Shown one piece after another: positions 21,227 through 51,976 of a DNA stretch of 64,000 nucleotides. The number at the start of each line of letters is the position of its first letter. Position 1 is the stretch's first letter. Position numbers and translations under genes: made by a program. The DNA lies in the NCBI RefSeq assembly GCF_900169485.1, contig NZ_LT821227.1, positions 806,001 to 870,000 of the forward strand, written 5' to 3'. The DNA comes from Phoenicibacter congonensis. GTDB lineage: Bacteria; Actinomycetota; Coriobacteriia; Coriobacteriales; Eggerthellaceae. The notes beneath the pieces are model-generated. The model saw nothing but the letters and a program-made list of their open reading frames with translations. It was not told where the DNA came from and ran no database searches.

Positions 21227-22150
21227 GTGAAAGACAATGCTAAGTTTTGCGGAGTCATTCCACCAGTAATAATTCCTTTAAAAGAAGACCGCACGCTCGA
21301 CGTGAATTCATTCGAGAGAAGCATCGATCGAATGATTGGCGCGGGCGTCAGCGGTCTTTTCTTTTTGGGATCAAGCGGTGAAGTGGCATTTTTAACAAGT
21401 GAAGAACGACTTCATGTCATCAAAGAAGCTCTTCGTATAGTTGATGGGCGAGTTCCGGTTCTTGTTGGGGTTATCGACATGGAAACGCTTCGTGTCATCG
21501 AAAAGATCGAACAGCTCAAAGGTCTAGACATCGATGCTCTCGTTGCGACTGCTCCTTTCTATGCTCTTGGTGGCCCAAAGGAAACAGAGCGCCACTTTGA
21601 AGTTTTGCGTGAGCACACCGACCTTCCCATTTTTGCCTATGACCTTCCTTGCTGTGTCCACACTAAGCTCACGCCTGATATGCTCTTGCGTCTTGCAAAA
21701 AAAGGTGCAATTCAGGGTGTGAAAGACTCAAGCGGTGATGATGTCATGTTTAGATGGCTCATGCTTGACAATGAAGACGCTGGTCATCCATTGCAACTCC
21801 TCACAGGTCATGAAGTTGTTGTTGACGGGGCACTTTTGGGTGGTGCTGATGGTAGCGTTCCTGGTCTTGCTAACCTCGATCCATTCTCCTATGTTGAGCA
21901 ATATAAAGCCGCGAGAGCAGGCGATTGGGCAAAAGTTGCCGAGCTACAAGATCATCTTGCACGTTTGATGATGCTCACTCGTTATGTAAAAGCCACTGTT
22001 GGTTTTGGTGCTGGAGTCGGTGCTTTTAAAACTGCATTGTGGCAAATGGGCATTTTTGAAACAAACCAAATGCGCGAACCTGTTTCAAAGCTCGAAGGCG
22101 AAGATGTGGAAAAAATCGTTGAAGTTTTGAAAAAGAATGGAATGATGTAA
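21227..22150 (+). CDS. DapA/NanA family aldolase, probable N-acetylneuraminate lyase
   Basis: 307 residues from GTG 21227 (AAGGGG 6 bases upstream). Class I aldolase of the dihydrodipicolinate synthase / N-acetylneuraminate lyase family. The Schiff-base Lys lies in GVKDSSGD (about residue 166), the proton-shuttle Tyr in FAYDLP (about 139), and GSSGEVAFLT is the pyruvate-binding GxxGE motif. The family cannot be split reliably by eye, but the gene is fused in operon with an AGE epimerase (0-base gap) and a ROK kinase-like gene, the exact set used for sialic acid breakdown, and no lysine genes are near. Alternative: a 2-keto-3-deoxy sugar-acid aldolase. Confidence 0.8.
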   Translation: MKDNAKFCGVIPPVIIPLKEDRTLDVNSFERSIDRMIGAGVSGLFFLGSSGEVAFLTSEERLHVIKEALRIVDGRVPVLVGVIDMETLRVIEKIEQLKGLDIDALVATAPFYALGGPKETERHFEVLREHTDLPIFAYDLPCCVHTKLTPDMLLRLAKKGAIQGVKDSSGDDVMFRWLMLDNEDAGHPLQLLTGHEVVVDGALLGGADGSVPGLANLDPFSYVEQYKAARAGDWAKVAELQDHLARLMMLTRYVKATVGFGAGVGAFKTALWQMGIFETNQMREPVSKLEGEDVEKIVEVLKKNGMM

Positions 22151-23368
22151 ATGCCAGACGAGGTTAAAGATTTAATTGAGATCAGGCAATGGTGCCGAGA
22201 TCAGCTTAAAACTTCCATTGATTTTTGGCTTGAGCACGGAATGGACAACATCAACGGTGGTGTCTACACTTGTCTTGACAGAAAAGGTGACGTTTACTCA
22301 ACTGACAAAAGTGTTTGGATGCAAGGAAGATGTGCTTGGACTTTTGGATATTTATGCAACGTTTATGGCGCCGAGCCTGAATGGAAAAAAGCTGCGAAAA
22401 GCTGTCTCAATTTTCTAGAGGATTATTGCATCAATGAAGAAGCTGGAAAGCGTCTTTATTTCACTGTTACTGCTGATGGAAAACCGCTTCGTCAGAGAAG
22501 ATATTGCTTTTCCGAAGGTTTTTATGCAATTGCAAATGCTGAGTTTTATCAAATCACAGGCAAGAAGAAATATCTAAAGCGTGCGCGCCGAGCCTATGAA
22601 ATGATTTATGAGCTAAATAACGGCTTAATAAAAGATCCAACTGGTTTTGGTCCAAAAACTATTCCTGCAACTCGCAGCGGTTTTGCACTTGCTGACCCAA
22701 TGATATTTTTGAACATTATTGGAATTTTACGTCGTGTTGACCCAGCTCACACGCAGGAATATGACACAAGGGCGAAAGAGTGTGTTGATAGAATTATCAA
22801 TTACCACTATCATCCCGAACTCAAATGTACACTCGAATGGGTTGACAAACAGGGAAACCCTTGCCTTGATTTTACTGATGGAAGAGTTGTCAATCCTGGT
22901 CATGACATCGAATGCAGTTGGTTTTTGATGGATGAAGCAAACTACGAAGGCAATTCTGAGTTGCATGAAAAAGCACGTGACATCTTTAAAAACGCTTTTG
23001 AAGCTGGCTGGGACAACGAATATCAAGGGCTACTTTATTTCATTGATTGCCTAGGCAAACCCACTGAGGCATATGAACATGACATGAAGCTTTGGTGGCC
23101 TCACAACGAGATTATGATTGCTTCTTCTAAAGCCTATCGCGACACTGGTGATCAATATTTCTTAGATTGCTTGAAGAGAACTGTTCAATATTGCAAAGAG
23201 CATTTTGTCGATGATGAATATGGTGAGTGGTATGGCTATTTGCGCCGTGATGGACTCCCAACCATGCCTTCAACAAAAGGATCTACTTTTAAAGGACCTT
23301 TCCATGTTCCTCGAGCATTGATAATGACTGAGCGCACACTGACAGAAATTATTGGAGACGAAGACTAG
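22151..23368 (+). CDS. N-acylglucosamine 2-epimerase (AGE) family protein
   Basis: 405 residues; ATG 22151 follows the nanA-like stop with no gap, so translation is coupled. Alpha/alpha-barrel AGE family, which interconverts ManNAc/GlcNAc or epimerises mannose/cellobiose-type sugars. Family marks are KSVWMQGRCAWTF (about 55), the His-containing PGHDIECSWFLMDEA (about 250, catalytic His), and LWWPHNEIMIASS (about 315, second His). Next to a NanA-like lyase the natural reading is ManNAc to GlcNAc, the route used by Bacteroides with an unphosphorylated epimerase. The C-terminal GPFHVPRALIM is typical. Confidence 0.88.
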   Translation: MPDEVKDLIEIRQWCRDQLKTSIDFWLEHGMDNINGGVYTCLDRKGDVYSTDKSVWMQGRCAWTFGYLCNVYGAEPEWKKAAKSCLNFLEDYCINEEAGKRLYFTVTADGKPLRQRRYCFSEGFYAIANAEFYQITGKKKYLKRARRAYEMIYELNNGLIKDPTGFGPKTIPATRSGFALADPMIFLNIIGILRRVDPAHTQEYDTRAKECVDRIINYHYHPELKCTLEWVDKQGNPCLDFTDGRVVNPGHDIECSWFLMDEANYEGNSELHEKARDIFKNAFEAGWDNEYQGLLYFIDCLGKPTEAYEHDMKLWWPHNEIMIASSKAYRDTGDQYFLDCLKRTVQYCKEHFVDDEYGEWYGYLRRDGLPTMPSTKGSTFKGPFHVPRALIMTERTLTEIIGDED

Positions 23369-23415
23369 GCAATTTAAAAAGATTAGTTATTGAGAAATTA
23401 ATAAGGAAAACAGAC

Positions 23416-24792
23416 ATGAATTATTTAGGTATTGACTATTCAATCAAAAACACGCCTGTTCTCGATGAAGAATTCATTCCGTTTGGCGTTTGGATGAAAG
23501 AGTTTCTTAAAGAGGCAACAAGACCAGTTTCTGTTGCTGTAGAGCGCGAAGACGGCAAAGTTTCGGTTCGCGACACATTCATTCGCGATGACAGTTTTGC
23601 TGAAGCTAATTATCGTTTTCTTGAGAGATTCATCAAATTTGAATTGTGGAGCATTGGTGGTTTTAAGGTCTACATCAAAGGCGCAGATGAAATTGCTGCA
23701 AAGTTAAAGGAGACCTATTCTTCAACTGGTGAGCGCGAGTTTGATTTTGGCTTTGTTCGCGATGTCTATGAAAAAGATTTGCAAATTATCGCCTGCTCCG
23801 ATGCCGATTTTCCATCAGCTAACGAGTCGCCAGCTAAAATTGGCGGTCACATGGATGGTTGCAGAATCGGTTTTGATGCTGGTGGTTCCGACAGAAAAGT
23901 TTCAGCTGTAATCGACGGCGAGAGTGTTTATTCTGAAGAGGTTGTTTGGTATCCAAAAGTTACAGAAGACCCAACATACCACTTCAACGAAATTGTCACA
24001 GCGTTTAAAACAGCAGCTTCTAAAATGCCACGTGTTGATGCGATTGGCGTTTCTAGTGCGGGAACGTTTGTTGGAAATTCCCCAATGGTTGCAAGCCTGT
24101 TTATTAAAGTGCCACGTGAGCGTCGTGAAGAAGTGAAATCAATTTATGACCGCGCTGGCAAAGAAATTGGCGATGTCCCTCTAGTTGTTGCAAACGATGG
24201 CGATGTCACAGCTCTTGCTGGATTTATGAGCACAGGACATGGGAACATTCTTGGAATTGCAATGGGCACAAGCGAGGCTGTTGGCTATGTTAATGGACAA
24301 GGCAATGTTCTTGGCTGGATAAATGAGCTTGCTTTTGCTCCAGTTGATTTAAGCAAAAATGCAATGCAAGATGAATGGTCACACGATTATGGTGTTGGTT
24401 GTAAATATTTCAGCCAAGATGCTGTAATCAAGCTTGCGCCAAAAGCTGGAATTGAGCTTGATGATAATCTCACACCAGCTGAAAAATTAAAAGTTGTGCA
24501 AGGTCTTGCAGAAGAGGGTCATGCAGGAGCTCTTGACATTTTCAGGTCAATTGGCACCTATCTTGCCCACACGCTTGTTCTTTATTCAAGTTTTTATGAG
24601 ATAGAGACACTTCTTGTTCTTGGTCGCGTAGCTTCAGGTGTTGGTGGTGATCTTGTCATTTCGGAGTGCAACAGGGTTCTTGCAGAAGAATACCCAGAGT
24701 TAAAAGAGAAAATCAACGTAACACTTCCAGACGAGATGATGCGTCGCGTTGGGCAGTCTGTTGCTGCCGCTTCTCTTCCGGCTGTTGATTAG
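23416..24792 (+). CDS. ROK-fold family protein, possible amino-sugar kinase, with extra N-terminal domain
   Basis: 458 residues; AAGGA SD before ATG 23416. The ROK-like core starts only at about residue 150 (IGFDAGGSDRKVSAVIDG, a variant phosphate-1 motif) and has VVANDGDVTALAGF with the catalytic-type Asp. The Zn-binding CxCGxxGCxE motif of classical NagK/NanK/GlkA ROK kinases is absent. Residues 1-145 are an unrecognised extension that also begins with IDYSIKN. Neighbours predict GlcNAc or ManNAc phosphorylation; a regulatory or non-kinase role is not excluded. No transporter is present in the operon. Confidence 0.7.
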   Translation: MNYLGIDYSIKNTPVLDEEFIPFGVWMKEFLKEATRPVSVAVEREDGKVSVRDTFIRDDSFAEANYRFLERFIKFELWSIGGFKVYIKGADEIAAKLKETYSSTGEREFDFGFVRDVYEKDLQIIACSDADFPSANESPAKIGGHMDGCRIGFDAGGSDRKVSAVIDGESVYSEEVVWYPKVTEDPTYHFNEIVTAFKTAASKMPRVDAIGVSSAGTFVGNSPMVASLFIKVPRERREEVKSIYDRAGKEIGDVPLVVANDGDVTALAGFMSTGHGNILGIAMGTSEAVGYVNGQGNVLGWINELAFAPVDLSKNAMQDEWSHDYGVGCKYFSQDAVIKLAPKAGIELDDNLTPAEKLKVVQGLAEEGHAGALDIFRSIGTYLAHTLVLYSSFYEIETLLVLGRVASGVGGDLVISECNRVLAEEYPELKEKINVTLPDEMMRRVGQSVAAASLPAVD

Positions 24793-34040: not shown

Positions 34041-36977
34041 ATGCAGAAATTCAAAATTTCCTCGATTCATGAGCTAGATGAATGTGCCAGTGCTTTTGCA
34101 AGTTTGCTCAAACCTGGAACAACAGTCCTTTTGGAAGGCCAGCTTGGAAGTGGAAAATCTGAATTCGTGCGTCATGTGGCAGCGCATCTTGGCGTGTCAG
34201 AAGAAGTTATGAGTCCAACATTTTGTTTTGTAAACGACTACTGTGCAGACAATTTCAATGTTTATCATTTTGACCTTTATCGTCTTAATTCAGAAGATGA
34301 ATTGTCAGAGATAGGCTTCGACGAACATGGATACAATCCAATAGACGGGGTCTCTTTTATAGAATGGTCAAATCTCTATCCCGATTCTATGCCTGAAGAA
34401 GCCATTAAATTGACTTTTGAAGGGCAGGGAGATGAGCCACGTGAGATCGCTGTTGAAGCTTATGGGAAAACTTCTTGTGAAATGGCAGACAAATGGCTTG
34501 CTAACAACAACAGAAAGTTTGTTCTTGCTTTTGACACCTCTAACGAAAAAGTGATCTTGGGACTTGCCGAGATTGGCCTAAACATTGCAAATAACGAAGA
34601 TAATCCGTCGAGTGTTTGTGTGGAGGAAACTCAAACTAACAATTCTCATTGCAATTCTAATCAAGAGCTTTCTAGCGGTGTTTTAGATGCCATAAAAGAA
34701 AAAGACAAGGACCCGGAGTGCTTGAGTGAAAGTTCTGCCCCAAAAGTCTTGATTAAATCGATTTTTCAAAAATCTATTGATTCAAAACGTGCTTCGAATC
34801 AAAAACTATTGCCAGAAATCGACATTCTTCTAAAAGAAAACCATGTTAACAAAAGTGAGATTGTTGCAATTGGTGTGGGTCGTGGGCCTGGATCATTTAC
34901 TGGTGTTAGAATTGCACTCGCTAGTGCTAAAGGAATTTGCTCTGCCCTAAATGTTCCTCTTTATGGGATTTCTACTCTCGATGCAGTAGCTGAAAATCTG
35001 CGCTTGAGCGGCAAGTTTGGGGACACTCTTGTTGTTGCCGATGCAATGCGCGGCGAAGTTTATCCCGTTGAATATGATGTTAAAAACAACACAATAAACA
35101 GAAAAAATGCTGACACTGTTGCAAAGCCTCAAGCTTTTGTGGACTCACACAACGTTTTGCAAGGCATGGCAGTTTGTGGTGATGGACTCATAAAGCACAA
35201 ACACTATTTCGAAGAAAAATATCATCTTTTAGATGAGTGTTTTTGGTACCCAACGGGGCAAAGCCTTGTTTCTCTTTTAGTTCAGCAAATGAATGAGGCA
35301 CTCGATTGGCAGTCGTCATTGATTCATAATGCGAGCAAAGTTTTGCCTGTATACACTCGTCTTTCCGATGCAGAGGAAAACGAACTGTCTCACATCTTGC
35401 AAAACAAGACAAAAGATCTTGTCACTGGTGTTCATGGTGACGACACGCAAATTTCAATTTCACCTGTCAAGCTTGATGATTGCAAAATTCTAGCCGAATT
35501 TGAGAAGTGCAATTTTGGAAGTGACGCATGGAGTGAAAACAGTTTTAAGACTGATGTGTGCGATTCAAACCGCGTTTGGTTAAAAGGCGTGATTAACAGC
35601 ACGATTGTCGGATATGTTGGCGCTTCAAGAAGTTCATCTGATGCTGACATTCTAAAAATTTGTGTTGATCCAAAATTTCGCAAACAAGGGATAGCTCGCC
35701 GGCTTTTGAGCGCTGCCTTTGAAACGTTACGCAATTTAGGCGCTTCAAATGTTATGCTCGAGGTTCGTGTTTCAAACTCGCCTGCCAGAGCACTTTATGA
35801 GTCTTTAGGGTTTAGCGAAGTTTGCACTCGCAAAAACTTCTATGGAAACGAAGACGCCGTTAGCTATTCGCTCGACATCTCAAATTTTTCTGCAAATGAG
35901 GAATTTGTTGAAGCTGATTCTCTTTTAAAGCCCAATGCACGCAAGCCTTTAATTTTTGCAATTGAATCGTCTTGCGATGAAACTGCTGGTGCGATTGTGG
36001 ATGGAGAGGACTCTATTATTTCAAATGTAGTTTCTTCATCAGCAAAATTTCATGCACGTTTCGGTGGTGTTGTCCCAGAAATTGCAAGCAGAAAACACAT
36101 TGAAGTCATATCTCAAGTCGCAGAAGAAACACTTCGTCTTGCAGGCATGAAAAACTATGATTCAATCGATGCTGTCGCTGTCACTGCAAAACCAGGGCTA
36201 GTTGGATCTCTTGTTGTGGGTCTAGCCTTTGCCAAAGGAGTCGCATGGGGGGCTAACAAGCCGTTGATTCTTGTTGACCATCTGGTTGGTCATTTGTTTG
36301 CAAACAAGCTTTGTTCTGACTCAATTAAAATGCCGTGTGTTGCCTCACTCATTTCTGGTGGAAACACCATGCTTGTTCTTGTGCGTGATTGGGGCGACTA
36401 TGAGGTGATCGGCGGGACAATTGACGATGCAGTGGGGGAGGCTTTTGATAAAGTTGCAAGGGCAATGAACTTGCCCTATCCTGGAGGACCTGAAATTTCA
36501 GCGCTTGCAAAGGAAGGCAACGCCGATAATGTGGAACTTCCGCGACCTCTTCTGCACAGCCACGATTTGAGAATGAGTCTCTCGGGTCTAAAAACTGCAG
36601 TTATTCTTGAAATTGAGCGCTTGAAAAAAGAGAATGCCGATGGACGTCTGACCCGCCAAAACATGTGTGACATTTGTGCCTCTTTTGAACAGAGCATTTG
36701 TGATGTTCAAGTTGCAAAAGCTCACGATGCCTTAGTAAACACGCATGCAAAGACTTTCTGCTTTGGTGGTGGAGTAGCAGCGAACCGCCAGTTGAGACGT
36801 GCATATTCAGAAATGTGTGACAATCTTGGAGTTAGCTTTTGCGTTGCTCCGACAGATGTTTGTGGTGACAACGCAGCAATGATTGGATTGGCTGCTCAAT
36901 TTGAATTTAAAAACAAACGATTCGCTTCTCTTGATGCCGATGTCAGCTCTTCATCTCGCCTAAATTCGCGTAGGTAA
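34041..36977 (+). CDS. TsaE-TsaB-RimI-TsaD four-domain fusion (t6A tRNA modification plus GNAT acetyltransferase)
   Basis: 978 residues in one open frame; GAGGTG SD before ATG 34041. Domain order: TsaE ATPase ~1-150 (Walker A GQLGSGKS 33-40, MSPTFCFVNDY, HFDLYRL); TsaB ~158-460 (FDTSNEKVILGLAE, GRGPGSFTGVRIALASAKG) with a polar 185-240 insertion; RimI GNAT ~472-613 (VDPKFRKQGIARRLL acetyl-CoA loop, SNSPARALYESLGF); TsaD/Kae1 ~635-978 (IESSCDETAGAIVDG, metal-binding HLVGH 747-751, CGDNAAMIG). TsaB, TsaD and TsaE transfer threonylcarbamoyl to A37 of ANN-decoding tRNAs; TsaC is not seen. TsaB-RimI and RimI-TsaD fusions are known, and all four in one chain is notable. Confidence 0.93.
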   Translation: MQKFKISSIHELDECASAFASLLKPGTTVLLEGQLGSGKSEFVRHVAAHLGVSEEVMSPTFCFVNDYCADNFNVYHFDLYRLNSEDELSEIGFDEHGYNPIDGVSFIEWSNLYPDSMPEEAIKLTFEGQGDEPREIAVEAYGKTSCEMADKWLANNNRKFVLAFDTSNEKVILGLAEIGLNIANNEDNPSSVCVEETQTNNSHCNSNQELSSGVLDAIKEKDKDPECLSESSAPKVLIKSIFQKSIDSKRASNQKLLPEIDILLKENHVNKSEIVAIGVGRGPGSFTGVRIALASAKGICSALNVPLYGISTLDAVAENLRLSGKFGDTLVVADAMRGEVYPVEYDVKNNTINRKNADTVAKPQAFVDSHNVLQGMAVCGDGLIKHKHYFEEKYHLLDECFWYPTGQSLVSLLVQQMNEALDWQSSLIHNASKVLPVYTRLSDAEENELSHILQNKTKDLVTGVHGDDTQISISPVKLDDCKILAEFEKCNFGSDAWSENSFKTDVCDSNRVWLKGVINSTIVGYVGASRSSSDADILKICVDPKFRKQGIARRLLSAAFETLRNLGASNVMLEVRVSNSPARALYESLGFSEVCTRKNFYGNEDAVSYSLDISNFSANEEFVEADSLLKPNARKPLIFAIESSCDETAGAIVDGEDSIISNVVSSSAKFHARFGGVVPEIASRKHIEVISQVAEETLRLAGMKNYDSIDAVAVTAKPGLVGSLVVGLAFAKGVAWGANKPLILVDHLVGHLFANKLCSDSIKMPCVASLISGGNTMLVLVRDWGDYEVIGGTIDDAVGEAFDKVARAMNLPYPGGPEISALAKEGNADNVELPRPLLHSHDLRMSLSGLKTAVILEIERLKKENADGRLTRQNMCDICASFEQSICDVQVAKAHDALVNTHAKTFCFGGGVAANRQLRRAYSEMCDNLGVSFCVAPTDVCGDNAAMIGLAAQFEFKNKRFASLDADVSSSSRLNSRR

Positions 36978-38145: not shown

Positions 38146-39921
38146 ATGTTGCATAGCGATTCTAATGATACCCTTGCATGTGGTATTGATGTTGGATCTA
38201 CCACAGTTAAATGTGTTGTTTTAAATGACAACAATGATGTTTTGTGGAGCGTCTATCAGCGTCACATGAGCGATGTTAGAGCAACGGTAAGAGACGTTCT
38301 AGAGCAAGCACAAGAGCAGTTTCCAGATTCTCTAATGTCAATCGCTATCACCGGTTCTGGTGGATTGTTGTTGGCAGAGGCTTTAAAGGTTCCTTTCGTT
38401 CAGGAAGTCATAGCTAACAAAACAGCTGTTGAAACTCTCATTCCCTCAACCGATGTCGCCATCGAACTTGGTGGGGAAGATGCAAAAATAGTTTATTTTG
38501 ACAATTCTATTGAGCAACGAATGAATGGAACTTGTGCTGGTGGTACAGGCGCTTTTATCGATCAAATGGCATCGCTTTTAAATACCGATGCTGCTGGTCT
38601 AAATGAACTTGCTAAATCTCACACAATCATTTATCCAATTGCTTCAAGATGCGGGGTATTTGCGAAAACCGATGTTCAACCTTTGTTAAACGAGGGTGCG
38701 AAGCGTGAAGACATTGCAGCTTCTATTTTTCAATCTGTAGTAACTCAAACAATTTCGGGTCTTGCATGCGGCAGACCAATTAGGGGAAACGTTGCTTTTT
38801 TGGGTGGTCCTCTTCAATATCTAAGCGAGCTGCGCAAGCGTTTCTATGAAACTCTTGAGCTCACCGATGATGAAATCATCGTTCCTGAAAATGCACATTT
38901 ATTTGTGGCAACGGGCTGTGCAATTGCCTCGAAAAAGGAAGACTTTGAACCGTCTAAATTAGGTGATATCCTTGATCGTTTTTCAAAAGTTGGGACAATT
39001 CAGGGTTCAGAAGTTGAAAGACTGCCACCTCTCTTTAAAGACGAGGAAGACTATAGAGAATTTAGGTGCAGACATGATGCTGAAAAAGTGAAAAAATGCT
39101 CGATCGATGGTTATGAGGGCCCTGTGTTTCTTGGCATTGATGCCGGGTCGACCACCTTTAAAGCTGCAATTGTAAACGACAAAAAAGAACTCATGTGGAC
39201 GACCTATGCATCAAATAAGGGTGATGTTTTGGGTTGCGCAAAAGCAGCTCTCACTGAACTCTATGGATTGCTTGGTGATAAAGTCTTTATTGGTCACTCG
39301 ACAGTGACTGGCTATGGAGAGGGACTCCTTTTGCAGGCGTTAAAAGTTGACTCAGGCGAAATCGAAACAGTTGCGCATCTTCGTGGTGCCCAAGAATTGA
39401 TGCCTGACGTTGAATTTATTCTTGACATCGGTGGTCAAGATATGAAGTGTTTGCGTGTTAAAAATGGAGTCATTGACCACATTATGCTAAATGAGGCATG
39501 TTCGAGTGGATGCGGAAGTTTCATTGAGTCATTTGCCTCGGGTCTTGGTCTTTCAGTGCATGAGTTTGCAGAAGCTGCATGTAAAGCAAAAGCCCCAGTT
39601 GACCTTGGCTCTCGCTGCACTGTGTTTATGAATTCTCGTGTAAAGCAAGCTCAAAAAGAAGGCGCAGCTGTTGAAGACATTGCTGCTGGTCTTGCCATTT
39701 CTGTGATTAAAAATGCTCTTTTTAAAGTAATTAAAATTAGAGACCCAAAAGATGTTGGCAAGCATGTTATTGTGCAGGGTGGCACTTTCTTAAACGATGC
39801 TGTTTTGCGTGCATTCGAACAACTTTCGCATGTAAATGCAGTTAGGCCCGACATAGCAGGAAACATGGGGGCATATGGCGCAGCTCTTCTTGCCCATGAG
39901 CGTTGGGAGAAGGGAGAATAA
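38146..39921 (+). CDS. Tandem BadF/BadG/BcrA/BcrD-type ATPase (2-hydroxyacyl-CoA dehydratase activase-like)
   Basis: 591 residues; SD AAAGGAA before ATG 38146. Two activase modules: module 1 (1-~290) with [26 protein letters not shown] and [11 protein letters not shown]; module 2 (~325-591) with [28 protein letters not shown] and [11 protein letters not shown]. Each module keeps both Cys that, in HgdC-type dimers, bridge one [4Fe-4S] cluster, so two clusters may form per chain. Activases use ATP to push an electron into a dehydratase. The next gene, one base away, carries the partner regions normally in the same polypeptide. Confidence 0.88.
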
Positions 39922-39922
39922 A

Positions 39923-42616
39923 GTGGCTAAAGTCAGAAAATCTTCCATTCTTGGAATTGATGAATTAAATAAATTAAATCCATCGCACAAAACTGTCAGG
40001 TGCAAAGGTTGTTCAAACTCGTGTCTTTTGACAATCAATGATTTTGGAATTGACGAAAAAACTGGAAAACACAGAAGATTCATTACTGGCAACAGATGCG
40101 AACGCGGTCAGTCGATGGGTGAGAGACGTGTGAAAAATAATGTTCCGAATTTGTTTGAGTGGAAAAGTTCGCGCCTTTTTGATTACTACACTCCTCTAGA
40201 TGAAAAAGATGCGCCTGCTGGCACTGTTGGCTTGCCTCGGGCTTTGAATATGTATGAGAATTACCCGTTTTGGTTTACTTTTTTTACAAAACTTGGCTAT
40301 CGGGTAATTCTGTCTGACAAATCAAGCAAAGATATTTATAACGCTGGCATTGAGTCAATGCCTTCGGAAAGTGTTTGTTATCCAGCTAAGCTTTCCCACG
40401 GGCACATTATGAATTTGCTAGAAAAACCCGTTGATTTTATTTGGATGCCGTGCACAAAATGGGAACGTGGAGAAGATGAAACTGCTGGCAATCATTTCAA
40501 TTGCCCAATCGTGGCAAGTTATCCTGAAGCTTTGCGTTTAAACATCGACGAGCTAATAAATTCTGACATTCAGCTCATCACCCCATGGGTTCCCTATGAC
40601 AAAAAAGACAAATTAAAAAAGCGCCTTTTTGAAATTATTACAAAAGAGCATAAAGCTGAGATGTGCAAGAATGGCGTTGTTCCAACAAAAAAACAAATTG
40701 AAGATGCAGTCGATTGTGCATGGGCAGAAGATGAAAACTTCAAGCGAGACATTCGCATTAAGGGAACTGAAACTTTAAAGTGGATGGAAGAAACTGGCAC
40801 GCACGGCATTGTTTTGGCTGGGCGTCCCTATCATCAAGATCCCGAAATAAATCATGCGATACCTGAACTTCTGAACTCTTTTGGGCTTGCAGTTTTAACC
40901 GAAGACTCTATTGCTCACCTTGGCCAGCTCGAACGTCCAATTCGTGTTGTCGACCAATGGATGTATCACACGCGTCTATATGCTGCGGCAAAAGTGGCAG
41001 CCAAACGAAGCGACCTTGATTTAATTCAGCTAAATTCTTTTGGTTGTGGTCTTGATGCCCTGACAACCGACCAGGTCCAAGAAATTTTAGAGTCGGCTGG
41101 AAAAGTTTACACTGTCCTTAAAATTGATGAGGTTTCAAATCTTGGTGCAGCAAAGATTCGTGTCAGAAGTTTGCTCGCTGCTTTAAAAGATAAAGCTGAT
41201 GAAATTAATGAAGTTAAAGACGAAAAGGCTGCTATTGAGCGTGGGTGCCCTGTGAGCTGCTTGTCATCAGTAGACATTAAAGAACTCATCCCCGACTTGC
41301 CAACCGAAAAGTCGGTCATTGCAGACACCGATGAAGTTGGTGACAGAGAGTCGGTTACCACTGAGTTTGGCAGACCTGAGTTCACTAAGAAGATGTTTGA
41401 TGAGGGCTACAAAATCTTGGCTCCCCAAATGGCTCCGATGCATTTCGAATTGCTCGTTCCGATTTTTGATCGCTTCGGATTCAATGTTGACCTTTTACCT
41501 TCTGTGGACCATGAAGCAGTTAATTATGGCTTGAAATATGTTAATAATGACATTTGTTACCCTTCAATTCTTGTGACGGGTCAAATAATGGAAGCTGTGC
41601 TTTCTGGTCGCTATGACACAAACAAGCTGGCTGTTTTAATCACTCAAACTGGCGGAGGTTGTCGAGCAACAAACTACATCGCGCTCATCAGAAAAGCACT
41701 TAAAGCAGCAGGTCTTGGCCACATCCCAGTTATTGCATTGAGTTTTAAGGACCTAGGCGAACACAATTCTGGATTTAAGCTATCTCCAAAAATGCTTTTG
41801 CAGGCAGGCTATGCCATTTTCCTTGGCGATTTGTTAATGCAATGTTTATATAAAACTCGTGCCTATGAACTCGAGAAAGGTTCAGCCAACAACATATTCA
41901 GCCACTGGACGGAAGAATGCAAAAAGGCGCTTCGAAAGGGAGTTTCGAGAAGTGACTTTAAGCGTTTGTCTGAAGACATAATTGCCGATTTTGACAATCT
42001 TCCAATTGATGATTCTGTTAAAAAACCAAAAGTTGGTGTGGTGGGAGAGATTCTCGTTAAGTTCCATCCAACTGCAAACAACAACATTACTGACAAGATT
42101 GAAGAAGAAAACTGCGAAGTTGTTGTTCCAGGCTTAACAGAATTTTTCTTGTTTGGGCTTGTAGGAGGCATTTTCCAGCAAGAAATTGGAAGACCTAAAA
42201 AGTCGGAACTTGGTTCAAAACTTGGGCTTGCAGCAGTAAGAAAGATTAGACAACCGTTAGTTGAAGCATTAAAGAATTCAAACCGTTTTGAGCCACCAAC
42301 TGACATTCTTGAACTCGGGGAATATGCTTCTGAAGTTTTGAGCCTTTGCAATTCAATGGGTGAAGGTTGGCTTTTGACAGCCGAGATGGTTGAACTAATT
42401 AAGTCTGGTTGCCCAAACATTGTTTGCACGCAGCCTTTTGCATGTCTGCCAAATCATGTTGTCGGCAAGGCTGTCATTAAAGAACTTCGCAGGAAATATC
42501 CAAAAAGCAACATTGTTGCTGTCGACTATGACCCTGGTGCATCAGAGGTAAATCAGCTAAACAGAATCAAGCTCATGATTGCAGTTGCAAAATCTAACCT
42601 TGAAGCAGGTCTTTAA
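39923..42616 (+). CDS. Activase-associated protein: DUF2229 and dehydratase-like (HgdB-type) regions
   Basis: 897 residues from GTG 39923 (GGAG 6 bases upstream), one base after the activase gene. N-terminus has a CKGCSNSC cluster-like motif; residues ~100-330 fit DUF2229 (VGLPRALNMYENYPFW ... ESVCYPAKLSHGH), and the rest fits the HgdB-like part (VLITQTGGGCRATNY, VVGEILVKFHP, CTQPFACLPNHV). Well-conserved Cys throughout suggest Fe-S clusters. Many anaerobes encode these together with the activases as one 1400-1500-residue protein; the split here may be ancestral or derived. The chemistry is unknown; amino-acid fermentation is one possibility. Confidence 0.85.
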   Translation: MAKVRKSSILGIDELNKLNPSHKTVRCKGCSNSCLLTINDFGIDEKTGKHRRFITGNRCERGQSMGERRVKNNVPNLFEWKSSRLFDYYTPLDEKDAPAGTVGLPRALNMYENYPFWFTFFTKLGYRVILSDKSSKDIYNAGIESMPSESVCYPAKLSHGHIMNLLEKPVDFIWMPCTKWERGEDETAGNHFNCPIVASYPEALRLNIDELINSDIQLITPWVPYDKKDKLKKRLFEIITKEHKAEMCKNGVVPTKKQIEDAVDCAWAEDENFKRDIRIKGTETLKWMEETGTHGIVLAGRPYHQDPEINHAIPELLNSFGLAVLTEDSIAHLGQLERPIRVVDQWMYHTRLYAAAKVAAKRSDLDLIQLNSFGCGLDALTTDQVQEILESAGKVYTVLKIDEVSNLGAAKIRVRSLLAALKDKADEINEVKDEKAAIERGCPVSCLSSVDIKELIPDLPTEKSVIADTDEVGDRESVTTEFGRPEFTKKMFDEGYKILAPQMAPMHFELLVPIFDRFGFNVDLLPSVDHEAVNYGLKYVNNDICYPSILVTGQIMEAVLSGRYDTNKLAVLITQTGGGCRATNYIALIRKALKAAGLGHIPVIALSFKDLGEHNSGFKLSPKMLLQAGYAIFLGDLLMQCLYKTRAYELEKGSANNIFSHWTEECKKALRKGVSRSDFKRLSEDIIADFDNLPIDDSVKKPKVGVVGEILVKFHPTANNNITDKIEEENCEVVVPGLTEFFLFGLVGGIFQQEIGRPKKSELGSKLGLAAVRKIRQPLVEALKNSNRFEPPTDILELGEYASEVLSLCNSMGEGWLLTAEMVELIKSGCPNIVCTQPFACLPNHVVGKAVIKELRRKYPKSNIVAVDYDPGASEVNQLNRIKLMIAVAKSNLEAGL

Positions 42617-50383: not shown

Positions 50384-51976
50384 ATGTTGGAAAGAATTGA
50401 CCTAAGCGAACAACCACTTGATAAAGAAAGCTACAAGGCGCTGCGTAAGGATTTAACTCGGCGCCTTATTTCTTTACAACAAGAGGCTGTCCAGAATGGA
50501 TGTGGTCTTGTTGTACTTTTTGAGGGTTGGGATGGCGCTGGCAAAGGCTCGCGTTTGTCAGACCTTCTTTATAATCTTGATGCTCGTGCAACCAAAGTTC
50601 ATGTTCCTGAAGATGTAAAAAAGCATGAAGTTAACGATTTTGAGGAACTCAATTCAGGTGTGCGTGGCTATGATCCTTTTATGAAAGAATATTGGCAAGC
50701 CCTCGGGCCACGTGGTCACATTACTTTTTTCGATCAGGGCTGGTACATGAAGGCAGTTCAGCGTGCCATTTATTCGAAAGAGCAAGTTCCAACAGAACTC
50801 TTCCAAGACGCAATCATGTCTGCTCACGATTTTGAGCAACAACTTGTTGACAATGGATATGTTTTGGTAAAGTTCTTCTTGCATGTCAGCAAAGAATCTA
50901 TTAAAAAACGTCTTCACTTGATGGCAAAAGACCCTGCTACATCATGGCGAGTTAGCAAAAGAAAACTAGAGTTTCTCGATTATTACGATGATGCATATGT
51001 TGGATTTGACACTATGCTCGAAAGGTCAAACTATAGCTTTGCTCCGTGGACTTTAGTTAATGCAGAAAGCAAACGAATCGCAAACATAACCATCTTAAAG
51101 ACAATGATTGACGCATTGTCGGTTGCTATTACGCGCAAAAAAGCAGAGAATAAATTGTCTCAAGTTAAGGTGACCGATGAAAACGATTTAGCCGAAACAA
51201 GAGCCGAAATTCAGCATTCTTTTGCTCCCATGGCATCGGAATTTGCAATTGAGCATCAATATCCAATAGTTGAAAACATCTCTCATGAGTTGTCCTATTC
51301 GCCTGAGCTCTACGACAAACATTTAAAGAGGCTTCAAAAAGAGATTTTTGAACTACAAAACTTGTGTTTTCAGAAAAGAATACCAGTGCTTGTTATGTAT
51401 GAAGGCTGGGATGCTGCTGGAAAAGGTGGAGCAATAAAAAGGCTTGCACAATCGCTTGACGCTCGTTCCTATTCAATCATTCCTTCTCCAAAGCCTAGTG
51501 TCGATGAGTTAGCGCATCCTCACCTTTGGCGTTATTGGACGCGTTTGCCAAAAGCAGGGCACGTTGGCATTTTTGACAGAAGTTGGTATGGTCGTGTGCT
51601 CGTTGAGCGAGTCGAAGAAATTACAAAGGCAAGCGATTGGGCTCGTGGCTATGACGAGATCAATGAATTTGAGCGTGACTTGTTAAAGTGGGGCGCTATT
51701 CTAATTAAATTCTGGGTTAACGTATCTCAAGCAGAGCAGTTGAATCGTTTTAAGGCGCGCCAGGAAGACCCCGATAAACAATGGAAAATTACCGATGAAG
51801 ACTGGCGCAATCGCGATAAATATGTACTATATAAGTCGGCTATCGATGACATGTTCCGTTTGACTTCAACTGAACAAGCGCCCTGGTTTGTTCTTGAAAG
51901 TGATGATAAACTTTATGCTCGCATTAAGTCGTTAACGGTTATTCGCGATGCAATGAAGGAAAGACTAGATGGCTAA
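50384..51976 (+). CDS. pap: Polyphosphate:AMP phosphotransferase (two-domain PPK2)
   Basis: 530 residues; strong SD GGAGG before ATG 50384. Two PPK2 kinase domains: ~15-240 (FEGWDGAGKGSRL) and ~305-525 (MYEGWDAAGKGGAIKRL, then IFDRSWYGRVLVERVE). Class II PPK2 proteins make ADP from AMP using polyphosphate, usually only one half being active; the Walker-type GxDxAGKG loop is intact in both halves, while the second half also keeps DRSWYGR. Follows atpC by 21 bases and overlaps sortase by 8. Confidence 0.92.
   Translation: MLERIDLSEQPLDKESYKALRKDLTRRLISLQQEAVQNGCGLVVLFEGWDGAGKGSRLSDLLYNLDARATKVHVPEDVKKHEVNDFEELNSGVRGYDPFMKEYWQALGPRGHITFFDQGWYMKAVQRAIYSKEQVPTELFQDAIMSAHDFEQQLVDNGYVLVKFFLHVSKESIKKRLHLMAKDPATSWRVSKRKLEFLDYYDDAYVGFDTMLERSNYSFAPWTLVNAESKRIANITILKTMIDALSVAITRKKAENKLSQVKVTDENDLAETRAEIQHSFAPMASEFAIEHQYPIVENISHELSYSPELYDKHLKRLQKEIFELQNLCFQKRIPVLVMYEGWDAAGKGGAIKRLAQSLDARSYSIIPSPKPSVDELAHPHLWRYWTRLPKAGHVGIFDRSWYGRVLVERVEEITKASDWARGYDEINEFERDLLKWGAILIKFWVNVSQAEQLNRFKARQEDPDKQWKITDEDWRNRDKYVLYKSAIDDMFRLTSTEQAPWFVLESDDKLYARIKSLTVIRDAMKERLDG

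What the first reader, a model, noticed from the sequence alone, without database searches (positions are those of the whole stretch)
21227..24792. Lyase-AGE epimerase-ROK trio: Bacteroides-like sialic acid or amino-sugar route, with an atypical kinase
A NanA-like aldolase, an unphosphorylated AGE epimerase (0-base gap) and a ROK-fold protein suggest Neu5Ac to ManNAc to GlcNAc to GlcNAc-6-P. The ROK protein lacks the zinc CxCG motif and bears a 145-residue N-terminal domain that itself starts with an ATPase-like IDYSIKN. Transporter, sialidase and NagA/NagB are absent here.
Basis: inference. Interest (0 to 1): 0.5.

Follow-up and report, generated by a model that had tools for sequence, protein, structure and literature searches.

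The report
Sialic-acid operon with an atypical kinase
Three adjacent genes in a gut bacterium most likely break down sialic acid by the route known from Bacteroides, and the last step seems to be done by an overlooked kinase family that carries an extra domain of unrecognised fold.

Summary
The trio is real: lyase 21227-22150, AGE-type epimerase 22151-23368, ROK-like protein 23416-24792, in a Phoenicibacter-like Eggerthellaceae genome. AGE and the ROK-like protein occur in the same 18 of 246 Coriobacteriia genomes, at most 173 bp apart in all 18. Of 27 Eggerthellaceae loci, 22 also carry this lyase, 20 nagA and 16 a peptide-type ABC transporter. The own genome has nagA-nagB about 0.7 Mb away. 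NanE was not found in 57 of 60 genomes with the ROK-like protein, so the order Neu5Ac, ManNAc, GlcNAc, GlcNAc-6-P fits best. The lyase resembles C. glutamicum Nal more than E. coli NanA. AlphaFold gives residues 147-458 a ROK kinase fold with phosphate loops and catalytic Asp kept; the zinc motif is absent in 59 of 59 and the ExGH histidine is Phe in 59 of 59. Residues 1-146 form a confident separate domain without a clear PDB match; the 'ATPase-like' start is not conserved. The route is known. The kinase subfamily looks like a new variant that may be the 'missing rokA' of Eggerthellales. No activity, substrate or transporter is shown; all are inferred.

The parts
21227..22150 (+). Lyase (class I aldolase, DHDPS/NAL superfamily, C. 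glutamicum Nal type), 307 aa, GTG start; Tyr138 (21638-21640), Schiff-base Lys166 (21722-21724), GSSGE motif
   Evidence: PF00701 148.1 bits; 5c54 E 2.7e-70; active-site residues by alignment and PMC5380162 passages; a separate dapA exists in the genome
22151..23368 (+). N-acylglucosamine 2-epimerase (AGE, NanE-II type), 405 aa, starts directly after the lyase stop; His251, Glu254 and His385 line up with AGEs
   Evidence: PF07221 171.7 bits; NF052547 325 bits of a 600-bit cut-off; 8bry, 2gz6, 1fp3, 6f04 E 2e-76 to 7e-69
23416..24792 (+). Two-domain ROK-like protein, 458 aa, the proposed GlcNAc kinase
   Evidence: PF00480 15.1 bits, under cut-off; AlphaFold model pLDDT 91.0, pTM 0.89; fold matches
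23416..23853 (+). N-terminal domain of the ROK-like protein, residues 1-146, alpha/beta, fold without a clear PDB match
   Evidence: model of the domain alone pLDDT 93.9; Foldseek best E 0.044, VIA best Z 4.8
23854..24789 (+). ROK kinase domain, residues 147-458
   Evidence: VIA Z 25.5, rmsd 3.0, 281 aligned, to 2yhy; Foldseek E 2.3e-17 to 2qm1
23863..23907 (+). Phosphate-1 loop RIGFDAGGSDRKVSA (residues 150-164)
   Evidence: 15 positions invariant in 59 of 59
24193..24204 (+). Catalytic loop N260-D261-G-D263
   Evidence: invariant in 59 of 59; lines up with the ND motif of 1z05 and of E. coli ROK proteins
24265..24285 (+). Phosphate-2 loop GTSEAVG (residues 284-290)
   Evidence: G284, T285, S286, E287, A288 and G290 invariant in 59 of 59
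24325..24336 (+). ELAF (residues 304-307), in place of the ROK ExGH sugar motif
   Evidence: invariant in 59 of 59; placed by hhalign
24370..24420 (+). Segment in place of the zinc loop CxCGxxGC (residues 319-335, DEWSHDYGVGCKYFSQD)
   Evidence: CxCG in 0 of 59 homologues

Best explanation
The three genes are the cytoplasmic core of a Bacteroides-type sialic acid route. The C. glutamicum Nal-like lyase splits Neu5Ac into pyruvate and ManNAc; the AGE epimerase turns ManNAc into GlcNAc without phosphorylation; the two-domain ROK-like protein phosphorylates GlcNAc to GlcNAc-6-P; NagA and NagB, encoded elsewhere in this genome and often beside the trio in relatives, lead it to fructose-6-P. The ROK-like protein is a zinc-free subfamily with an extra N-terminal domain of unknown role. 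Shown by computation: families of lyase and epimerase, kinase fold and conserved catalytic motifs, gene linkage, presence of nagA/nagB, lack of NanE. Inferred: every enzyme activity, the sugar that is phosphorylated, the transporter, and the role of the N-terminal domain.
For: AGE and the ROK-like protein in the same 18 of 246 class genomes, gaps 1 to 173 bp. 27 Eggerthellaceae loci: AGE within 250 bp upstream in 27, lyase in 22, nagA in 20, nagB in 13, all four transporter genes in 16. Transporter SBP is SBP_bac_5, the ST3 sialic acid type by PMC8754123 section 10. In 64 Bacillota loci AGE is divergent within 300 bp in 20, nagA or nagB follows on the same strand within 3 kb in 15, and a second lyase whose representative scores best as N-acetylneuraminate lyase (227 bits against 124 for dapA, under cut-off) lies in 11. 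Of 22 such genomes without a detected AGE, 8 keep nagA/nagB within 3 kb of the ROK-like gene, which points to GlcNAc as the sugar. NanE not found in 57 of 60. nagA 294 bits, nagB 299.5 bits in the own genome. No ROK hit over the Pfam cut-off in the own genome. Kinase fold and motifs.
Against: No assay. 5 of 27 Eggerthellaceae loci have AGE and ROK-like but no lyase in the stretch, and 22 of 42 Bacillota genomes asked have the ROK-like gene without a detected AGE, so the kinase is not tied to sialic acid. The ExGH histidine is Phe and the Glu of the zinc-loop segment is not in its usual place, so the sugar cannot be read from the pocket. CgNal has Km 33.5 mM for Neu5Ac and is also a DHDPS. No convincing transporter of the relatives' type near the hits looked at in the own genome, and no BNR_2 sialidase. 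PF00480 does not report the window's own ROK-like protein even at E<=1, so 'no other ROK' does not rule out another diverged kinase; Glk and BadF-type GlcNAc kinases were not searched in the genome.
Confidence: 0.68

Rival explanations
1. The ROK-like protein is a ManNAc kinase, so that phosphorylation comes before epimerisation as in E. coli; AGE then serves another purpose.
For: The top fold row is human ManNAc kinase 2yhy, Z 25.5.
Against: GlcNAc kinase 7p9l (Z 24.8) and repressor Lmo0178 (25.3) are ties. NanE, needed after a ManNAc kinase, was not found in 57 of 60 genomes, among them 18 of 18 Eggerthellaceae. The gene sits beside nagA/nagB also in 8 of 22 genomes without a detected AGE.
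Confidence: 0.08
2. The lyase acts on another 2-keto-3-deoxy acid (KDG, KDGal) or is a second DHDPS, and the trio serves a different sugar or plain ManNAc/GlcNAc use.
For: By profile the lyase is nearest to dapA (143.9 bits against 91.3 and 77.5 for NanA models, all under cut-off). It lacks the Asp191/Glu192/Ser208 set of E. coli NanA. The aldolase YagE is a PDB match (E 6.7e-31). 5 of 27 Eggerthellaceae loci lack it.
Against: 5c54, which I take to be C. glutamicum Nal, is nearer by 30 orders of magnitude in E-value than any other solved protein, and CgNal cleaves and makes Neu5Ac. nagA is in 20 of 27 loci. In Bacillota a different, NanA-like lyase is near the same kinase in 11 of 64 loci.
Confidence: 0.15
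3. The ROK-like protein is a regulator or a sugar sensor, not an enzyme.
For: In 20 of 64 Bacillota loci it is divergent from AGE within 300 bp, as many regulators are. The repressor Lmo0178 fits the fold as well as kinases do. The ExGH histidine and zinc are missing.
Against: No winged helix: the extra domain is predicted as beta-alpha-beta-beta-alpha-beta-alpha-alpha-beta. Phosphate-1, Asn-Asp and phosphate-2 positions are invariant in 59 of 59. In 13 of 18 Eggerthellaceae genomes with it PF00480 finds only fragments or nothing, so without it the pathway would have no ROK kinase there.
Confidence: 0.09

Closest known systems
Bacteroides fragilis NanL - NanE-II (AGE) - RokA pathway (PMC10017367 passages; PMC8754123)
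   Same: Order of steps: lyase, epimerase acting on free ManNAc, kinase last, then NagA/NagB
   Different: The kinase here is under the Pfam ROK cut-off, has no zinc motif and an extra N-terminal domain; the lyase is of CgNal type; ABC transporter in relatives. BfRokA itself was not compared, as I did not hold its sequence
Putative Bacteroidetes-type route in Rubneribacter badeniensis and 'Arabia massiliensis' (PMC8754123 section 5)
   Same: nanA clustered with nanE-II in Eggerthellales; R. badeniensis ResAG-85 is my locus L022, with lyase, AGE, ROK-like, nagA and nagB
   Different: That survey took rokA by BLASTP (over 30% identity) and found both genes in 2 of 7 nanE-II species; the passages and sections I read do not mention a kinase beside nanE-II
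C. glutamicum Nal (PMC5380162; I take PDB 5c54/5c55 to be this protein)
   Same: Tyr138, Lys166, GxxGE and the unusual Gly, Glu and Val at the recognition sites
   Different: Thr199 of CgNal is Val197 and Ser143 is Cys143 here
Zinc-free NanK of Fusobacterium nucleatum (5nck; PMC5458393 passages)
   Same: ROK fold without the CxCGxxGC zinc site
   Different: FnNanK keeps ExGH with its His and has no extra N-terminal domain; here the His is Phe in 59 of 59

Membership tests
ROK kinase family | ROK fold (ASKHA, two lobes) | tested here: met
   residues 147-458, VIA Z 25.5 to 2yhy, Foldseek E 2.3e-17 to 2qm1
ROK kinase family | Pfam PF00480 over its gathering score | tested here: not met
   15.1 of 22.9 bits for the window protein; 56 of 59 homologues match at E<=0.1, best 3.4e-6
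ROK kinase family | DxGxT phosphate-1 motif | tested here: inconclusive
   DAGGS in 59 of 59: Ser in the place of Thr
ROK kinase family | Catalytic Asp in the Asn-Asp loop | tested here: met
   N260-D261 in 59 of 59, aligned to ROK proteins
ROK kinase family | ExGH sugar motif | tested here: not met
   ELAF in 59 of 59; alignment by hhalign, probability 40%
ROK kinase family | CxCGxxGC zinc motif | tested here: not met
   0 of 59; also missing in F. nucleatum NanK
ROK kinase family | Sugar kinase activity | not testable with these tools
   needs an assay
AGE (N-acylglucosamine 2-epimerase) | GlcNAc_2-epim profile over cut-off and closer to AGEs than to cellobiose epimerases | tested here: met
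   171.7 of 23.4 bits; AGEs E<=7e-69 against 8e-28 for cellobiose epimerases
AGE (N-acylglucosamine 2-epimerase) | NCBIfam NF052547 equivalog cut-off | tested here: not met
   325.4 of 600 bits
N-acetylneuraminate lyase | Catalytic Tyr, Schiff-base Lys, GxxGE | tested here: met
   Tyr138, Lys166, GSSGE
N-acetylneuraminate lyase | Classical NanA recognition residues Asp191/Glu192/Ser208 | tested here: not met
   replaced, as in CgNal
N-acetylneuraminate lyase | NCBIfam NanA equivalog cut-offs | tested here: not met
   91.3 of 281 and 77.5 of 382 bits
Bacteroides-type sialic acid route | Clustered lyase and AGE, a kinase, nagA and nagB, no NanE | tested here: met
   the kinase by fold and linkage only
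Bacteroides-type sialic acid route | Sialic acid uptake system in the same genome | tested here: inconclusive
   two SBP_bac_5 proteins, neither with the relatives' full transporter; other transporter classes were not searched

The most novel reading that the evidence does not exclude
A kinase subfamily shared by Eggerthellaceae and Oscillospiraceae/Lachnospiraceae-type gut bacteria has rebuilt the ROK sugar site: zinc and the ExGH histidine are gone, and a 146-residue domain of unrecognised fold, perhaps new, is fused in front and may help to form or gate the pocket. It is the overlooked GlcNAc kinase of a sialic acid route that was thought to be rare in Actinobacteria.
Probability: 0.45. Interest if true: 0.55.

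Novelty: new variant of a known kind. Interest (0 to 1): 0.4.

Why it matters
Surveys that look for RokA or a Pfam ROK hit would miss this protein: PF00480 does not report it in its own genome even at E<=1. Sialic acid and GlcNAc use may therefore be under-called in Eggerthellaceae and related Bacillota; Li and Huang 2022 credited 2 of 7 nanE-II species of Coriobacteriia with the route. It also gives a test case of how a ROK-fold kinase could work without its zinc and ExGH histidine, and ties a conserved domain without a clear PDB match to a plausible pathway.

Tried and rejected
ATPase-like N-terminus: rejected on conservation and on the domain's lack of a clear PDB match. Weak rows to RNase H1 (Z 3.0), Ssz1 (2.8) and Thermus ROK hexokinase (2.7) do not rise above unrelated rows, so a worn-down RNase H-like half is neither shown nor excluded. 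hhalign of the N-terminal profile to four E. coli ROK proteins found nothing. No winged helix was listed for the domain; only solved structures were searched. Eukaryotic hexokinases align from residue 13-16 on in the whole model, which I did not follow.

Lyase as the housekeeping DapA: rejected, a full dapA lies at G000:340232-341080.

Own transporter: an SBP_bac_5 protein at 143767 (46% to the SBP of L030, no permease of that type in the 17 kb around it) and a peptide-type system near 1050868 (SBP 23%) were read. Neither convinces. No genome search was left for permeases.

Weak PF00480 hits in the own genome: 428692 is a hydantoinase/oxoprolinase protein; 844179 is the BadF-type ORF of the window; 1237976 was not followed.

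The first neighbourhood table used a greedy ORF caller that fails in GC-rich loci; the counts come from tblastn with reference proteins. Two AGE pieces cut by contig ends (L053, L084) are not in the count. Of the 80 loci I put 58 plus the window into A1; L074 was dropped for its stop and the rest left out to thin near-copies. Of the 20 AGE matches, 15 have 58-68% identity, four 44-46% and one 27%.

Literature: (open-access PMC only) showed no description of this ROK-like subfamily. Seen: outline, passages and sections 5 and 10 of PMC8754123; passages of PMC5380162, PMC5458393 and PMC10017367; passages and section 20 of PMC5583593; of other papers only the listings.

Odds were lowered slightly after it (best reading 0.68, novel case 0.45), because one search shows that PF00480 misses this very protein.
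Full report
What is there. The window is G000:C1:806001-870000 of a single-contig 1,447,956-base genome. The nearest named relative found is the MAG L019, titled Phoenicibacter congonensis (ROK-like protein 93%, lyase 91%, AGE 85%), so this is a Phoenicibacter-like Eggerthellaceae; I did not establish the species. L019 has the same block in the same order.

Lyase. It belongs to PF00701. NCBIfam gives 143.9 bits for dapA, 91.3 and 77.5 for two NanA models, all below cut-off. A true dapA sits elsewhere (347.5 bits). By far the best solved relative is 5c54, labelled DHDPS/N-acetylneuraminate lyase (E 2.7e-70; the next different protein 4.3e-40). I take 5c54 to be C. glutamicum Nal because its residues agree with those listed for CgNal in PMC5380162 (passages); the paper does not name that entry. 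CgNal cleaves and makes Neu5Ac, with weak affinity for Neu5Ac (Km 33.5 mM at pH 7.5) and DHDPS activity besides. The window protein keeps Tyr138, Lys166, GSSGE and the CgNal-type Gly, Glu and Val, with Val for Thr199 and Cys for Ser143. Neu5Ac lyase is the best guess, not a shown fact.

Epimerase. PF07221 at 171.7 bits. The four closest solved chains are AGEs (E 2.3e-76 to 7.4e-69); cellobiose epimerases follow at 7.8e-28. The His residues in NPGH and FKGPFHVPR line up with those of 8bry, 2gz6 and 1fp3; that they are catalytic is recalled.

ROK-like protein. Pfam gives 15.1 bits (cut-off 22.9), NCBIfam nothing, PDB no sequence hit better than E 0.19. A profile of 59 homologues finds only weak ROK hits in PDB, and hhalign to four E. 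coli ROK proteins gives E 2.9e-4, probability 40%. The AlphaFold model (pLDDT 91.0, pTM 0.89) settles the fold: residues 147-458 match ROK kinases and repressors, Foldseek E 2.3e-17, Z 25.5 to human ManNAc kinase 2yhy, 25.3 to repressor Lmo0178, 24.8 to GlcNAc kinase 7p9l; these are ties and do not tell the sugar. RIGFDAGGSD, Asn260-Asp261 and GTSEA are invariant in 59 of 59; the place of ExGH reads ELAF in 59 of 59; CxCG occurs in 0 of 59. Loss of the zinc loop is known in F. nucleatum NanK, which keeps ExGH (PMC5458393 passages).

N-terminal domain. Residues 1-146 fold confidently alone (pLDDT 93.9). Foldseek has no match at E<=0.001 (best 0.044), VIA best Z 4.8 to a designed protein, and a PDB sequence profile search best E 0.33.

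Context in Coriobacteriia. The ROK-like protein is in 18 of 246 genomes and AGE in 18 of 246: the same 18, with gaps of 1 to 173 bp. Relatedness inflates such a match. In 27 Eggerthellaceae loci (16, 11), AGE is within 250 bp upstream on the same strand in 27, this lyase is in the stretch in 22, nagA in 20, nagB in 13, and all four transporter genes in 16. Several stretches are cut by contig ends, so the last four are lower bounds. In L030 the transporter is an SBP_bac_5 protein, a permease, a permease fused to an ATPase, and an ATPase. SBP_bac_5 is the ST3 sialic acid type in Actinobacteria (PMC8754123 section 10), though the same fold serves peptides.

Context in Bacillota. Of 64 loci (L035-L098), AGE is divergent within 300 bp in 20, nagA or nagB follows on the same strand within 3 kb in 15, nagA or nagB lies somewhere in the stretch in 33, and a second lyase in 11. 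One representative of that lyase scores best as N-acetylneuraminate lyase (227.3 bits against 123.6 for dapA; under the 281-bit cut-off). A gene of the c31 cluster starts 7 to 45 bp after the ROK-like gene in 18 of 64; its representative is a GDSL-type hydrolase. I asked 42 of the 64 genomes, mostly those without AGE close by: 20 have an AGE match at E<=1e-20 (15 of them at 58% identity or more), 22 have none (completeness unknown). Of those 22, 8 keep nagA/nagB within 3 kb. NanE was not found in 57 of 60 genomes, among them 18 of 18 Eggerthellaceae. Together this favours GlcNAc over ManNAc as the sugar.

Own genome. nagA (294 bits) and nagB (299.5 bits) lie at 87424-89638, about 0.7 Mb from the trio. 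nagB is followed by a 755-aa protein without a Pfam match that is 53% identical to the gene beside nagB in L030. So nagA/nagB kept their old neighbour and the trio is the part that sits apart. No ROK hit passes the Pfam cut-off, but that search does not report the window protein itself even at E<=1, so another diverged kinase could hide. Of the 18 Eggerthellaceae genomes, four have a full-length ROK match (G030, G074, G200; G154 in two pieces), one a partial one (G188), and 13 only fragments or nothing. In the Bacillota most genomes asked do have ordinary ROK proteins, so the argument from absence is an Eggerthellaceae one. No BNR_2 sialidase: the organism would depend on free sialic acid, ManNAc or GlcNAc.

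Origin. In a tree of the 59 ROK-like proteins the Actinomycetota rows with the window form one clade (100/98) that lies among Bacillota rows under a midpoint root. Transfer from Bacillota is a fair guess; the root is not independent.

What is known. The order of steps is that of Bacteroides fragilis (PMC10017367 passages). Li and Huang 2022 found nanE-II in seven Coriobacteriia species, nanE-II clustered with nanA plus rokA in only two, and called the route rare (PMC8754123 section 5). Their rokA search was BLASTP at over 30% identity to known proteins. The gene described here sits beside AGE in all 27 Eggerthellaceae loci I held, R. badeniensis ResAG-85 (L022) included, and could be the kinase that search did not see in the other species; I did not match the seven species one by one. 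Ravcheev and Thiele 2017 (PMC5583593, passages and section 20) mention NagK1 and NagK2 as non-orthologous GlcNAc kinases; I could not tell whether either is this family.

Verdict. This is a new variant within a known pathway; the kinase subfamily with its extra domain is the part worth testing.

Noticed in passing
window 34041-36977: One 978-aa ORF carries TsaE, GNAT acetyltransferase and TsaD domains; from its middle part a TsaB domain is likely too (by eye), so several tRNA t6A genes seem fused.
   Followed up: partly
window 38146-42616: BadF/BcrA-type ATPase (591 aa) followed by a 913-aa DUF2229 protein: a CoA-enzyme activase pair; another ASKHA protein that weakly rings the ROK profile.
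   Followed up: partly
window 50384-51976: 530-aa protein with two PPK2 polyphosphate kinase stretches.
   Followed up: no
L030:4724-6748: A permease fused to an ATPase (675 aa) in the peptide-type transporter beside the trio in relatives.
   Followed up: partly
L120:7498-9108 (own genome near 143,500-145,100): SBP_bac_5 protein, 46% identical to the SBP of the relatives' cluster, without permeases of that type around it; it may be a leftover or may borrow a permease.
   Followed up: partly
L119:9658-11928 and L030:13626-15830: Large membrane-type protein without a Pfam match beside nagB in both genomes, 53% identical.
   Followed up: partly
L045, L047, L048 and 15 other Bacillota loci: A GDSL-type hydrolase gene starts 7 to 45 bp after the ROK-like gene in 18 of 64 loci; a sialate O-acetylesterase is conceivable.
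   Followed up: partly
L074:10001-11383: The ROK-like gene copy of this MAG holds a stop codon in frame: a pseudogene or an assembly error.
   Followed up: no
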